DNA of 64,000 bases from [Phormidium] sp. LEGE 05292. GTDB taxonomy: Bacteria > Cyanobacteriota > Cyanobacteriia > Cyanobacteriales > Aerosakkonemataceae. Shown here in pieces: positions 2,790-6,687 of the stretch (the stretch's first letter is position 1; each line of letters starts with the position of its first letter). A program made the position numbers and the translations under genes. Under the pieces are notes generated by a model, which was given only the letters and a program-made list of their open reading frames with translations, was not told the DNA's origin and did not search any database. The stretch spans positions 1 to 64,000 of the forward strand of contig NZ_JADEWG010000007.1 in NCBI RefSeq assembly GCF_015207735.1, read 5' to 3'.

Positions 2790-3464
2790 TTGGCAAAAAA
2801 TAATTTTACAAAGGCTCAAAATTATCTAAAAAAAATGACTCAATCTCAAGCTGAACTCAAATTATACAGCTTTGATGAATTTATAAGCTGGTATCCCGAA
2901 AACTCAGAAGTCCGGTACGAACTGCATGAGGGAGTAATTATTGAAATGCCCAAGCCAAAGGGAAAACATTCAAATCTAACAGGTTCCCTAATCGAGCAAC
3001 TATTAATAATTATCAGGCAGATGGGCAAAGGCGGCATTTGGACTATTCCTAGAGAATCGATTGTTAAACCAAAACGGGAACAATCCGGTTATGAGCCGGA
3101 TATTATTGTTTTAAACCAAGAAGTTCTGGAAGCTGAACCGCGATGGGAAAGCGAATCGATTATCCAAAATCCTGATTCAGTTAAATTAATTGTTGAAGTT
3201 GTTTCTACTAATTGGCGTGACGATTACTATAATAAACTTCGAGATTATGAGGAGATGGGTATTGAGGAATATTGGATTGTTGATTATGCAGCATTAGGGC
3301 CGAAAAAGTTCATCGGCAACCCGAAAAAACCTACATTTTTTGTTTGTAATTTGGAGGATGGGGAATATCAGATGAATCGATTTACGGGAAATACTGTGAT
3401 TAGTTCTCCAACTTTTCCTCAGTTCAATTTATCGCCACAGCAGATTTTTGCTCTCGTTCTATAG
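2790..3464 (+). CDS. Uma2 family (DUF820) endonuclease
   Basis: A second Uma2/DUF820 protein (up to 224 residues) with YEPDIIVLNQEV, LIVEVVSTNWRDDYY and NKLRDYEEMGIEEYWIVDY, the expected PD..V, E.V and K/Y positions of the fold. The start at 2790 is TTG, with ggag 15 bases upstream. An ATG at 2835 (MTQSQAEL) matches the usual family N-terminus better, so the true protein may be 209 residues. It is divergent from the Uma2 gene at 1812-2549, is not a close copy of it, and lacks the coiled-coil tail. Confidence 0.86.
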   Translation: MAKNNFTKAQNYLKKMTQSQAELKLYSFDEFISWYPENSEVRYELHEGVIIEMPKPKGKHSNLTGSLIEQLLIIIRQMGKGGIWTIPRESIVKPKREQSGYEPDIIVLNQEVLEAEPRWESESIIQNPDSVKLIVEVVSTNWRDDYYNKLRDYEEMGIEEYWIVDYAALGPKKFIGNPKKPTFFVCNLEDGEYQMNRFTGNTVISSPTFPQFNLSPQQIFALVL

Positions 3465-3750
3465 GAAAGCTTTAATATGTAATATTGCTATGACTGAATA
3501 CCTTAGATAATTATTGAAGTTTCGAGTGCCGCTGGTGAAGAAAATTTATTCGTTGACGAGGCTTTTTTCTTCATCGATGAGGTTAAAAGGCTCGTTTGAA
3601 AGTTTCAAAGACTCATCGATGAGATTCTGAGGTTGATGGTTGAGAGAAAACTTATTGAACTGGATTATTTTTGCTCCAAACATATTTTTTGCAGACTTCG
3701 CAGGCTGCTTTTTGTTCTTCGATTCGACTTCTGTGTAGATGAATAGTTAA

Positions 3751-6243
3751 TTAAACTTTTGATTTTGTTTCATCCACTGGCTCAACTAATAGGGTAATAC
3801 CTTTTCTTCCAACTACGAAAGCACTATCGCCAGGAAGCAAAGCAATTTCTTGTAAACACTGGGCATTCCAGTATGAATTCATAAAACGGACTCGTCCAAT
3901 TTTACCAGGTTCTATTACTTCTTCTATAATTACTCTCCTTCTCATAGTAAAAAATTCATCTGCCCTACCTTGTAGCTGATAGGAAGTATTTTCTGGCTGT
4001 CCTCCCCATTGCTCATTTATTATATTACTCACCCAAGATAAGATATCTTTATTTATTTGTTCTCTAGCATCCTCTGACTGATTAAATAACTTATCTATAA
4101 TTTTTGCCACTCGCTGTAAAACACTAACATCAGCTTTTTCTTTAGCATCGCTTTTCTTATAAAATTCTTTACTTAAAGAATCTAAATAGGGTTCAATTTC
4201 TGACCATCGCTTTCGTATATGAACTAAAAGTCCCCCCATTATCAAGAACTTTTCATCTTTCTGATTGTTCTTCCATTCACGATAAGCATCATCAATTTTG
4301 GTAACTAATCGACGTAGTTCTCGATTTTTTTCACGCCATTGTGTAAATTTTAACCATCCTTCTATTAAAGCTTCATGTGCTAAATCAATCCAAGCTTCTT
4401 CTTGCTGATTTTCTTTACCAGTGACTAACAATCGTCCGCAAATCAACTCATCTAAAACATCATTAATAACTTTCCCATCCGCTAAATTATCCTTAGCAAT
4501 ACCCAACAATTTAGCTTTCGGTTGCCTTTGCCTAGTATCCTTCTCCCCCTCACCCGTTCGCACCAACCTTAAAAATATCCGCTTTATCCATTCCTGTTCT
4601 TCCGCCGTTCTCTCCAACTGCGGCAAATCTTTCTGAAAATCCTTATATCTATAAACCTTTTCCGCGTGACGGTTCAGCGCCCCAGTTACTCCCCCCAGCA
4701 CTTGATACTGTTCTAAAGTTAGCTGATGCTTTTGGTTATCACGTTTTTCCCAAAGTTCCGTCAGCGCAAACTGCAACAAAGGTAAACAGTCTTTCTCCTT
4801 CCCCACTTCATCCAAAATCGCTCCCAGCAAACCAGTTTCCAGATGATAACCTTGAAGATTAGCAGGTTTTGCGATTGCCTCTTCTAATTCTGCCCCCAAC
4901 AAAGGCGGCATATACACCGCTTGATTTTGAATCAACCGAGTCAGCGACTCATAACTCAAACAATATTCCAGAAAATCCGCCCGCATTGTCGTCACAATTG
5001 CCAACCGCGAATCGGGAATTTCTGCTACCTTGGTGAGCAATTCAATAAATCGGCGTGTCTGTTCATCTTTATCCGAAGAACGAAGGGTAAACACCTCTTC
5101 AAATTGATCCACCACTAACAACAACCGCTTAGAACCGGGTAATCTTTCAATTACCGCAGGTAAACCAGCCGTTTCCATGAGAGAATAGATTTCTGGCAAT
5201 TGCGATCGATCAAACCAACCATTAAAAGCCCGCTTCAATTCCGCCAACGGTTCCACCCCAGGCAAAATCGGTTCCGCTAACAATTCCCAGCCATTTTCCT
5301 TTAATTTAGGAATCAAACCTGCGCGAACTACGGAAGATTTGCCACTCCCCGACGCGCCAATTATCGGCACAAAATTCGCTTGTCCCAGCTTTTGCCATAG
5401 CAGCTGGATGACTTTCTCCCGTCCAAAAAAGAATTCCTTCTGTTCTTCCCCAAAATACCTTAATCCTTGATAGGGACAATCTTCCTTAACAACTTTTTCC
5501 TTCTGTTTTGGCAGATATTGAACTAAAGTAATCGATCGTCCCCACCCCATGCGAATCGGTTCTTGACCGCTACCCTTGAGTTCTGATGCGATAAAATCGA
5601 AAAGGCGATCGCCACTAACTCGCCCATCCTCATCAGCATTATCATCCCCCAATCCCTGCAAAACTGCCCCCGTAAAAACCCCGTGTTCCTTAGCTTCCAA
5701 TGCCTTTTCAAACTCACGACAAGCAGTAATCAGGTAATAATCTTTTTGCCCAATAGCTTTCAAACTATCATTCAGAAGTTTTCGTTCTAGCGCATATCCA
5801 GCATGACAGCAATCTAACAAAATCACCAAATTGCTGAATTTTGACTTGCTAATCAACACATTCAAATCATCCAACAAAATCCCATTGCGTCCGTCGCTGC
5901 TACAATCTGAAGTTGCCAGAAATCCTTTCTTCTCATCCGTCCAACTGGCAACCTCTAAACCATGTCCGGCAAAATAAATTAGCGCCTCGTGGTTTTCCGC
6001 CTTCTTTAGCAAAAAGTCTTTCAGCGCCTCACCCAAATCTTTCCCCGTCAGTTTTTTATCCAGCGCCACTTCCCAACGGTTTTCCTCCTTTATCCACCGT
6101 CTTGGTAAGCGTTCCACATCCTGAAAATTGCCCTGTTTTTCGAGAATTTGGGCAATTGCCTCAGCATCAGTCGCAGCTTTGGGTAGATTTGGGCTAATCT
6201 TCTCATAGTTAGCAATACCAATCACCAGCGCATATCGAGCCAT
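3751..6243 (-). CDS. Caspase-like peptidase fused to nSTAND1 NTPase and NfeD-like OB domain
   Basis: An 830-residue three-part protein. Residues 1-245 form a C14 caspase/metacaspase domain: ALVIGIANY strand, His94 in YFAGHGLEV and Cys146 in LLDCCHAGYA form the dyad. Residues ~256-650 are an nSTAND1-type NTPase: CPYQGLRYFGEE linker, FFFGRE, Walker A GASGSGKSS (296-304), Walker B LLLVVDQFEEVF, and a sensor-like Arg in TTMRADFLEYC. A helical region follows. The last ~60 residues (GKIGRVRF, YWNAQC, GDSAFVV, TLLVEP) read like the C-terminal OB fold of NfeD. No WD40 or TPR sensor repeats are present, unlike many cyanobacterial caspase-STAND proteins. It is divergent from a Trypco1 gene 75 bases away. 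The expected behaviour is an NTP-gated protease that is activated on sensing a trigger; this is inferred from family knowledge. Confidence 0.88.
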   Translation of the reverse strand: MARYALVIGIANYEKISPNLPKAATDAEAIAQILEKQGNFQDVERLPRRWIKEENRWEVALDKKLTGKDLGEALKDFLLKKAENHEALIYFAGHGLEVASWTDEKKGFLATSDCSSDGRNGILLDDLNVLISKSKFSNLVILLDCCHAGYALERKLLNDSLKAIGQKDYYLITACREFEKALEAKEHGVFTGAVLQGLGDDNADEDGRVSGDRLFDFIASELKGSGQEPIRMGWGRSITLVQYLPKQKEKVVKEDCPYQGLRYFGEEQKEFFFGREKVIQLLWQKLGQANFVPIIGASGSGKSSVVRAGLIPKLKENGWELLAEPILPGVEPLAELKRAFNGWFDRSQLPEIYSLMETAGLPAVIERLPGSKRLLLVVDQFEEVFTLRSSDKDEQTRRFIELLTKVAEIPDSRLAIVTTMRADFLEYCLSYESLTRLIQNQAVYMPPLLGAELEEAIAKPANLQGYHLETGLLGAILDEVGKEKDCLPLLQFALTELWEKRDNQKHQLTLEQYQVLGGVTGALNRHAEKVYRYKDFQKDLPQLERTAEEQEWIKRIFLRLVRTGEGEKDTRQRQPKAKLLGIAKDNLADGKVINDVLDELICGRLLVTGKENQQEEAWIDLAHEALIEGWLKFTQWREKNRELRRLVTKIDDAYREWKNNQKDEKFLIMGGLLVHIRKRWSEIEPYLDSLSKEFYKKSDAKEKADVSVLQRVAKIIDKLFNQSEDAREQINKDILSWVSNIINEQWGGQPENTSYQLQGRADEFFTMRRRVIIEEVIEPGKIGRVRFMNSYWNAQCLQEIALLPGDSAFVVGRKGITLLVEPVDETKSKV

Positions 6244-6318
6244 GAAACCTGATCTGGGATACGGGGATTTTAGAGTATCCTATCCAACATAGCAGTTACC
6301 AAATTACCAAAATTACTC

Positions 6319-6687
6319 ATGTCAGAAGTAGAACGCCTGAGAATTAAAGATAATGGTCAAGAATACGACCTCTACATCCAGTCCAAAACTGATATCGATA
6401 TCCCAGAACGAGAAGACGATGAACCTGTAACTCGCGGTGTAATGCCTATAGCTACAGTCAACATCCAAGACGTTCACAATCAGATTCGCAGTTACACCAA
6501 ATTTGCGCTAGGAGCCTTCAAAAATTTTACTGAAGCGGAAATAGAAGAAGTCACAATTAAATTTGGCATCAAACTGGGTGGCAAAGCAGGCATACCTTTT
6601 GTAACAGAAGGTTCGGCAGAAAGCAACTTTGAAATAGAAGTTAAATGCAAATATCCTCAATCCCCACTAAATCAAAATCAACCTTAA
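6319..6687 (+). CDS. Trypco1 (CU044_2847-type) domain protein
   Basis: A 122-residue soluble protein. The C-terminal half carries the family pattern: a helix with VHNQIRSYTKFALGAF, then EEVTIKFGIKLGGKAGIPFV and a final strand ESNFEIEVKC. This matches the trypsin-co-occurring domain 1 (CU044_2847) family, which is found beside trypsin-like, caspase-like and STAND proteins in proposed NTP-dependent conflict systems. It is transcribed divergently from the caspase-nSTAND1 gene, with only 75 bases between the starts, so a shared control region is likely. I infer that it is a sensor, adaptor or substrate for the caspase protein. The assignment rests on pattern matching by eye. Confidence 0.72.
   Translation: MSEVERLRIKDNGQEYDLYIQSKTDIDIPEREDDEPVTRGVMPIATVNIQDVHNQIRSYTKFALGAFKNFTEAEIEEVTIKFGIKLGGKAGIPFVTEGSAESNFEIEVKCKYPQSPLNQNQP

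What the first reader, a model, noticed from the sequence alone, without database searches (positions are those of the whole stretch)
3751..6687. Divergent caspase-nSTAND1 and Trypco1 pair: candidate conflict or programmed-death system
Seen: a His94/Cys146 caspase domain, an nSTAND1 P-loop NTPase, and 75 bases away in the opposite direction a small protein with the Trypco1 pattern. Known: Trypco domains are found beside trypsin-like or caspase-like proteases and STAND NTPases in NTP-dependent biological conflict systems proposed from comparative genomics. Inferred: the small protein is a sensor, adaptor or substrate that gates the protease. The flanking Uma2 and GIY-YIG genes fit a defence or accessory setting.
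Basis: partly seen in the sequence, partly recalled or inferred. Interest (0 to 1): 0.72.

Follow-up and report, generated by a model that had tools for sequence, protein, structure and literature searches.

The report
Caspase-ATPase gene pair with swappable tail
In cyanobacteria, one type of caspase-ATPase protein is encoded back to back with one small constant partner protein, while its tail is exchanged for unrelated domains; in this genome the exchange left the end of the old tail behind as a scar, which suggests a cell-death or immune switch whose trigger is replaceable.

Summary
Window 3751-6243(-) encodes a caspase (His94/Cys146) plus nSTAND1 ATPase. 75 bp away, divergent, 6319-6687(+) encodes a genuine Trypco1 protein (62.2 bits, cut-off 24.6).

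The pairing is not local. Of 121 Trypco1 ORFs examined in cyanobacteria, 40 have a caspase neighbour, all 40 divergent; 52 have a trypsin neighbour, 51 on the same strand. All 40 caspase-paired Trypco1 lie in one 54-row branch of the tree.

(1) The caspase-nSTAND1 core is constant, but the part after it (residue ~711 here) is swapped: WD40 in 70 of 88, otherwise FGE, pentapeptide, histidine kinase, cyclase, SpoIIE or CHASE2. In the window it is an NfeD-like OB domain, on a core 89% identical to a WD40 version at the same chromosomal site. A 22-codon remnant of the old WD40 protein's end lies beyond the new stop codon. (2) Over 88 loci Trypco1 tracks the core, not the tail.

Best reading: an NLR/apoptosome-like protease switch with an exchangeable sensor, and Trypco1 as constant regulator or substrate. 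Immunity is untested. GIY-YIG/Uma2 as defence context is weakly supported at best. New variant of a known kind.

The parts
3751..6243 (-). caspase-nSTAND1-OB protein, 830 aa
   Evidence: ORF; Pfam; structure model, mean pLDDT 81.6
5629..6237 (-). caspase domain (residues 3-205; His94, Cys146, Asp144)
   Evidence: PF00656 73.1 bits; MALT1/metacaspase fold, Z 20.7
4252..5475 (-). nSTAND1 ATPase domain (residues 257-664), P-loop 296-304, Walker B 379-383
   Evidence: PF20703 365.6 bits; 368.1 bits at these coordinates in the genome search; Foldseek also lists plant NLRs and EfAvs5, low TM-scores
3754..4107 (-). exchanged C-terminal part (residues ~713-830) with NfeD-like OB domain (774-822)
   Evidence: protein similarity to L082 ends at residue 711-720; PF01957 32.2 bits; none of the other 87 complete relatives was classed so
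3652..3720 (-). stranded remnant: last 22 codons and stop of the ancestral WD40 protein, downstream of the present stop codon
   Evidence: 92.5% DNA identity over window 3601-3720 with L082 10911-10792, the end of its WD40 gene; translations of window, L082 and L079
6244..6318 (.). 75-bp divergent intergenic region, presumably two promoters back to back
   Evidence: read directly; recognisably conserved among short-spacer relatives by eye; no promoter tested
6319..6687 (+). Trypco1 protein, 122 aa; conserved core 56-112, acidic variable linker 22-47 with [RK][GD] at 39-40
   Evidence: PF19493 62.2 bits, NF041216 79.3 bits, column statistics, low-confidence model

Best explanation
The pair is a cytosolic, NLR/apoptosome-like proteolytic switch. 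The exchangeable C-terminal domain perceives a cue, the nSTAND1 ATPase uses NTP to change state or oligomerise, and this activates the N-terminal arginine/lysine-type orthocaspase, which kills or arrests the cell. The divergently transcribed Trypco1 protein is the constant second component: it works with the caspase-nSTAND1 core (inhibitor, scaffold or first substrate), not with the sensor. Shown: domain content, conserved catalytic and NTP-binding residues, recurrent divergent pairing, separation from trypsin-type Trypco1 in the tree, tail exchange on a constant core, and Trypco1 following the core over 88 loci. Inferred: sensing by the tail, oligomerisation, basic P1 specificity, physical contact of Trypco1 with the core, cell death and defence.
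For: Pairing: caspase neighbour in 40 of 121 Trypco1 ORFs, all 40 divergent. In a second set, fetched with a caspase-type query and so biased, 71 of 80 named loci have it. All 40 caspase-paired Trypco1 lie in one 54-row branch, SH-aLRT 95. From the caspase side, in the 386-genome set 20 of 20 core hits (window included) at 42% identity or more that start at residue 1 have a Trypco1 place at the divergent position (one search compared; one of these Trypco1 genes, G235, has an internal stop). Tail exchange. Trypco1 follows the core: Spearman 0.84 between core and Trypco1 identity over 3828 pairs, 0 of 500 matrix shuffles as high; at 85-95% core identity mean Trypco1 identity is 0.90 with same-class tails (116 pairs) and 0.88 with different-class tails (11 pairs). 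Both genes under purifying selection between window and L082: dN/dS 0.23 (core) and 0.20 (Trypco1). Likeness to MALT1/metacaspase and, for the ATPase, plant NLRs and EfAvs5.
Against: No functional data. Some tails are output enzymes rather than obvious sensors: histidine kinase in 4 of 88, one SpoIIE, one cyclase. Two family-set relatives lack a detected Trypco1: G394:C163 (L191), 59% core identity, none in the held upstream stretch, and G386:C77, 42%, no Trypco1 place on that contig (one search compared). More distant caspase-nSTAND1 proteins often lack it. 14 rows of the caspase branch of Trypco1 have no caspase neighbour. The window's own pair departs from the rule: its core is 90% but its Trypco1 only 70% identical to L082's, synonymous distances 0.22 and 0.92, so cores can be exchanged without their Trypco1. 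The G+C of the pair is ordinary (0.415 against 0.393 for the window). The Trypco1 model is poor (mean pLDDT 57).
Confidence: 0.5

Rival explanations
1. EACC1-like logic: the C-terminal domains are outputs. The caspase, gated by Trypco1 and nSTAND1, cleaves its own polypeptide and releases the histidine kinase, cyclase, phosphatase or adaptor.
For: Published proposal for EACC1 systems (PMC7159879, section 33 read); enzyme tails exist here.
Against: 70 of 88 tails are classed WD40 and 5 FGE/C-lectin-like, typical binding modules. NF047832 (EACC1-type caspase) scores 89.1, below its cut-off of 140. Neither window protein has a TM-like stretch by hydropathy.
Confidence: 0.2
2. Trypco1 is an antitoxin-like inhibitor of the caspase and the pair is a guarded toxin system.
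For: Small constant partner that tracks the core; in L083 both genes survive only as fragments.
Against: Caspase-nSTAND1 homologues without Trypco1 exist, one of them at 59% core identity, and solitary Trypco1 exists. In L079 the caspase gene is broken while the Trypco1 ORF is full length. Strict divergence is unlike usual co-transcribed toxin-antitoxin pairs (recalled).
Confidence: 0.2
3. An ordinary stress or developmental signalling protease of cyanobacteria, unrelated to phage defence.
For: Roles of orthocaspases in homeostasis, differentiation and ageing are proposed (PMC7517822 passages). Around the window pair no defence genes were recognised except the PADLOC candidate match of the Uma2 gene.
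Against: Replacement of whole tails, and a broken caspase gene at the same site in 2 of the 4 family genomes compared, window included, suggest a fast-changing trigger rather than a fixed pathway.
Confidence: 0.25
4. The pairing is only shared neighbourhood: two unrelated genes inherited together around one divergent promoter.
For: Related genomes share the site by descent; the window core and Trypco1 differ in synonymous divergence.
Against: 40 of 40 divergent in genomes of several families, with a branch-specific Trypco1 sequence. Sizes of the further neighbours vary between genomes (listing; their identity was mostly not examined).
Confidence: 0.1

Closest known systems
Trypco1-trypsin pairs of VMAP/MoxR-vWA ternary systems (Kaur et al. 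2020, PMC7159879, passages)
   Same: Same small domain family; adjacent protease gene; proposed NTP-dependent conflict systems of multicellular bacteria.
   Different: Protease is a caspase fused to nSTAND1, not trypsin; the gene is divergent, not co-directional; no MoxR, vWA or VMAP among the near neighbours scanned; the Trypco1 is in its own branch.
EACC1 and EACC2 caspase two-gene systems (PMC7159879 section 33; PMC8195603 passages)
   Same: Constant small component plus constant caspase followed by a variable C-terminus; STAND NTPases occur among the variable parts.
   Different: Small component is Trypco1 without a TM helix by hydropathy; divergent; nSTAND1 is part of the constant core in most pairs here; NF047832 below cut-off.
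Cyanobacterial orthocaspases/metacaspases with NACHT/AAA and WD40, FGE, pentapeptide, HisKA or CHASE2 (PMC3501461, PMC8283722, passages)
   Same: These accessory domains on caspase homologues have been listed; a wild-type orthocaspase was modelled as Arg-P1 (PMC8283722, abstract and passages).
   Different: The passages read do not mention Trypco1 or a divergent partner; neighbour analysis restricted to operons (PMC3501461) would by my inference not see a divergent gene. NfeD is not among the domains shown in the passages.
STAND/NLR-like antiphage proteins (Avs; EfAvs5 structure 9jap)
   Same: Effector - STAND ATPase - variable C-terminal part; Foldseek match with low TM-score.
   Different: Caspase effector and a constant second gene; no phage ligand or activity known.

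Membership tests
Trypco1 (PF19493 / NF041216) | profile score above curated cut-off over most of the domain | tested here: met
   62.2 vs 24.6 bits, profile 10-97 of 98; 79.3 vs 23
Trypco1 system as first described | neighbouring trypsin-like peptidase | tested here: not met
   neighbour is a caspase; trypsin in 52, caspase in 40 of 121 ORFs
VMAP / MoxR-vWA ternary system | MoxR ATPase, vWA and VMAP genes adjacent | tested here: not met
   the neighbours scanned in window 1-13.1 kb are a kinase, sub-threshold GIY-YIG, Uma2 twice, ABC-2 transporter, Wzt, sugar genes and one protein without a family; the rest of the genome was not searched for them
Peptidase C14 / orthocaspase | caspase fold with His-Cys dyad | tested here: met
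Peptidase C14 / orthocaspase | cleavage after Arg/Lys | not testable with these tools
   Asp144 two residues before Cys146 is invariant in the 34-row alignment; its meaning for specificity is recalled
nSTAND1 STAND NTPase | profile score, Walker A and B | tested here: met
   365.6 bits; conserved columns
EACC1 two-gene system | EACC1-type caspase and 5' TM-containing EACC1 gene | tested here: not met
   NF047832 89.1 vs 140; Trypco1 maximum 19-residue hydropathy 0.88
NLR-like antiphage STAND system | N-terminal effector, STAND, variable C-terminal module | tested here: met
NLR-like antiphage STAND system | phage-protein-triggered cell death or protection | not testable with these tools
   needs experiment

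The most novel reading that the evidence does not exclude
Trypco1 is the first substrate of the activated caspase. Caspase-branch Trypco1 carries, at the end of an acidic, variable, poorly modelled linker, a basic residue followed by Gly or Asp (R/K39-G/D40 in 76 of 105 sequences, close relatives included; Y or M before Gly in 25 of the other 29), a feature not seen in trypsin-branch Trypco1. Cleavage there would free the highly conserved helix and beta-hairpin part as the real effector or second signal, making this a bacterial protease-plus-activated-partner pathway with a field-swappable sensor.
Probability: 0.18. Interest if true: 0.85.

Novelty: new variant of a known kind. Interest (0 to 1): 0.6.

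Why it matters
If right, many cyanobacteria use a caspase and an NLR-like ATPase in one polypeptide with a constant small partner and a replaceable trigger, the layout of animal apoptosome or plant NLR pathways compressed into two genes. It gives Trypco1, a family without known function in the papers seen, a second and separable protease partner. It also offers natural tail-swap pairs (cores 87-90% identical, unrelated tails) that make the question 'does the tail set the trigger?' directly testable. The scar in this genome shows one such exchange at one chromosomal site.

Tried and rejected
Sequence search of PDB with Trypco1 gave nothing meaningful (best E 0.81). The AlphaFold model of Trypco1 (39 sequences) was poor, mean pLDDT 57, so I did not search folds with it. 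The C-terminal OB domain was not modelled (residues 746-830 below pLDDT 50), since the alignment held cores only. The VIA list is filled by the caspase domain; the likeness of the ATPase to plant NLRs and EfAvs5 rests on Foldseek rows with TM-scores of 0.26 or less. PADLOC gave the caspase model, PDC-S03 for both Uma2 proteins and weak hits, no system for the pair. I considered a retroelement near FGE-tailed members: a script found no ORF over 200 aa with a YxDD-like motif in L116, L117 or L135; only those three held stretches were looked at. I considered a pore-forming role for the Trypco1 hairpin: only an alternation pattern by eye, not claimed. I looked for a DNA source of the new tail in the 10 family genomes: none at E 0.001 besides itself. 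The 28 Trypco1 ORFs without a protease neighbour were checked only in part: 10 neighbour proteins from 8 loci gave no shared partner by Pfam.

Counts and rows dropped: of the places the 12 weakest (E from 7.5e-11) were not fetched; 120 loci plus the window were analysed. L124 was dropped because its Trypco1 has an internal stop; its caspase-nSTAND1 neighbour is intact. Three short Trypco1 ORFs were left out of the tree, which is a quick tree with few columns. The named-genome set is the best 80 of 203 loci, found with a caspase-type query; the 9 of 80 without a divergent caspase are 5 with none, 1 with only an nSTAND1 piece, 1 with a trypsin-profile hit, 1 with a convergent caspase and 1 without a Trypco1 ORF. 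The two sets overlap in organisms; 88 complete cores reduce to 82 below 98% identity. Tail classes over the 88 come from searches with single seed tails, checked by Pfam only for the 29 of the first set and 7 others. One search scored at most two candidates a genome, so it undercounts. Mean Trypco1 identities by core-identity bin, same-class against different-class tails, from 45-55% to 85-95%: 0.51/0.46, 0.59/0.57, 0.69/0.82, 0.82/0.83, 0.90/0.88.
Full report
What is there. The window holds an 830-aa protein on the minus strand (3751-6243) and, 75 bp away and divergent, a 122-aa protein (6319-6687). Pfam gives caspase (73.1 bits), nSTAND1 (365.6 bits) and Trypco1 (62.2 bits), all above cut-off; NCBIfam NF041216 agrees for the small protein (79.3 vs 23). 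His94, Asp144 and Cys146 are present and, with the Walker-B residues 379-383 and most P-loop positions, invariant in an alignment of 34 proteins chosen from the complete ones. The model of the large protein is confident to about residue 740. Its caspase part resembles MALT1 and metacaspase 4 (Z 20.7 and 19.7). Foldseek also lists plant NLRs and the SIR2-STAND protein EfAvs5, with low TM-scores. The own genome has one Trypco1 and four nSTAND1 matches above 350 bits.

Is the pairing real elsewhere? I searched 386 cyanobacterial genomes and the 10 genomes of the window's family with the Trypco1 model: 63 of 386 and 9 of 10 have a match at E 0.001. Of 121 Trypco1 ORFs, 40 have a caspase neighbour (32 of them with nSTAND1 in the same ORF), 52 a trypsin neighbour, 1 a broken nSTAND1 piece and 28 none. 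All 40 caspase genes are divergent from Trypco1; 51 of 52 trypsin genes are on the same strand. A tree of 118 Trypco1 proteins puts all 40 caspase-paired rows in one 54-row branch (SH-aLRT 95; the other 14 have no protease neighbour), while 49 of 51 trypsin-paired rows are on the far side. A second set, the best 80 of 203 named loci found with a caspase-type query, shows a divergent caspase in 71 of 80; by my reading of the 80 titles all are cyanobacteria, mostly genera such as Nostoc, Anabaena, Oscillatoria, Microcoleus and Pseudanabaena (filamentous, recalled), and one is titled 'Unicellular cyanobacterium'.

Seen from the caspase side, in the 386-genome set 20 of 20 core hits (window included) at 42% identity or more that start at residue 1 have a Trypco1 place at the divergent position (one search compared; in one, G235, it carries a stop). 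Below about 40% they are mixed. The family set holds two counter-examples: G394:C163 (L191), 59% identical and without a detected Trypco1 in the held upstream stretch, and G386:C77, 42%, with no Trypco1 place on its contig (one search compared). Of 13 caspase-nSTAND1 loci without Trypco1 that I looked at, five (L303, L313, L316, L195, L202) have a different divergent pair at that position.

The tail is exchanged. After the nSTAND1 domain the 29 complete proteins of the first set carry WD40 (21), FGE-sulfatase (3), pentapeptide (1), HisKA-HATPase (1), NfeD (1, the window) or no family (2). Over both sets, 88 complete proteins (82 below 98% core identity) were classed by seed searches as WD40 70, FGE 5, histidine kinase 4, pentapeptide 1, NfeD 1, other 7. 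Among the other are SpoIIE, guanylate cyclase and CHASE2, two have no family, and two short tails were not scanned. Near-identical cores carry unrelated tails: window (NfeD) vs L082 (WD40) 89% core identity, L230 (WD40) vs L267 (kinase) 90%, L145 (WD40) vs L146 (kinase) 87%.

A scar of the exchange. L082, L079 and L083 are the same chromosomal site in other genomes of the family: Uma2 homologues (a fragment in L083) on one side and the ABC-2 transporter on the other. L082 has an intact WD40 version. In L079 and L083 the caspase gene is in pieces; I describe this and mended nothing. In the window, the stretch 3601-3720, downstream of the present stop codon at 3751, is 92.5% identical to L082 10792-10911, which spans the end of the L082 WD40 gene. 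Translated in that frame, window 3652-3720 reads as the last 22 codons plus stop of the WD40 protein, 18 of the 22 residues being the same by my count from the printed translations. The simplest reading is that the WD40-coding DNA was replaced in this lineage and the tip of the old gene was left behind. Identity along the site is uneven: mostly 90-98% in the ATPase part, 74-80% in the transporter, and 84-95% in most of the Uma2 side. The synonymous distance of the core to L082 (0.22) is far below that of Trypco1 (0.92). So the stretch from the Uma2 side through the core has probably been exchanged between lineages more recently than Trypco1 and the transporter. Both genes remain under purifying selection (dN/dS 0.23 and 0.20).

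What Trypco1 goes with. Over 3828 pairs of loci, Trypco1 identity follows core identity (Spearman 0.84; 0 of 500 matrix shuffles as high, maximum 0.17) more than tail similarity (0.49). At 85-95% core identity it is 0.90 with same-class and 0.88 with different-class tails; over the five bins the differences go both ways (all bins under Tried and rejected). Relatedness contributes to all of these correlations; the same-class/different-class comparison is the informative one. The window's own pair is an outlier: core 90%, Trypco1 70% identical to L082. On the whole Trypco1 behaves as a partner of the constant part, not as a ligand-specific sensor. Branch-specific columns: caspase branch Tyr59 95%, Phe67 100%, Gly88 98%, Pro93 97%, Cys110 77%; trypsin branch Trp110 96%. 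In the acidic variable linker, position 39 is Arg/Lys in 73% and position 40 Gly or Asp in 103 of 105. In PMC8283722 (abstract and passages) a wild-type orthocaspase was modelled as Arg-P1, hence the substrate hypothesis, which stays a hypothesis.

Known or new. Trypco1 occurs in two papers of the library searched. One defines it as trypsin-co-occurring and pairs caspases with an alpha/beta hydrolase (passages; section 33 read). The other mentions Trypco and caspase-like genes near some retroelements (passages). Caspase homologues with NACHT-WD40, FGE, pentapeptide, HisKA and CHASE2 are listed in PMC3501461 and PMC8283722 (passages). I found no description of the divergent Trypco1-caspase-nSTAND1 pair, of its separate Trypco1 branch, or of the tail exchange; the searches were made, in open-licence papers only, and most listed papers were not opened. 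I therefore file it as a new variant of a known kind: it fails the defining features of the Trypco1-trypsin, VMAP and EACC1 systems that I could test, while its layout is that of NLR-like STAND systems.

Limits. No function was tested. The neighbour classes rest on profiles built here, seeded from window proteins and from one trypsin-like ORF chosen by motif. The Trypco1 fold is not resolved.

Noticed in passing
L303:3680-5043, L313:2805-4241, L316:2-1347, L195:3582-5026, L202:3-1444: Five of 13 caspase-nSTAND1 loci without Trypco1 have a different divergent two-gene partner: a ~153-161 aa protein followed by a ~296-321 aa protein. The L195 and L303 pairs and the small protein of L316 have no Pfam family. 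Possibly a sister system with another constant component.
   Followed up: partly
L354:4366-6424, L355:3966-5974, L359:4318-4987, L360:4298-5407, L361:4918-6030: The NfeD-like OB domain of the window's tail occurs elsewhere as tiny stand-alone ORFs, here in arrays of 2-6 copies.
   Followed up: partly
L352:1773-5208, L353:1208-4290, L356:2975-7016, L358:2295-5539: Stand-alone OB ORFs lie near other nSTAND1 genes, divergent in L352, L353 and L358 (with one gene between in L358), hinting that OB and nSTAND1 are recurrent partners, fused in the window.
   Followed up: no
L160:7018-9166 (similar lengths in L159, L161, L162): Variant with Trypco1 divergent from a caspase; in L160 the caspase is fused to iSTAND (PF19995) instead of nSTAND1 (the other three not scanned).
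   Followed up: no
L179, L144, L157, L163, L149, L134, L158: A seven-row Trypco1 clade without protease neighbour; in 5 of 7 loci two codirectional upstream genes of ~280 and ~1080 aa. The smaller one in L179 has a SWIM zinc-finger match.
   Followed up: partly
window 4391-5590 vs L082 and L079: nSTAND1-coding DNA is mostly 90-98% identical between genomes whose transporter gene on one flank is 74-80% identical (Uma2 side mostly 84-95%), suggesting exchange or gene conversion.
   Followed up: partly
L079:4259-6993 and L083:6491-7018: The caspase-nSTAND1 gene at the same site is broken in two of the four family genomes compared (window included), so the system may be dispensable or costly.
   Followed up: partly
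window 2790-3464: Uma2 protein matches the PADLOC candidate-defence model PDC-S03 with 291.5 bits; its role is unknown and it is a resident of this site in relatives.
   Followed up: no
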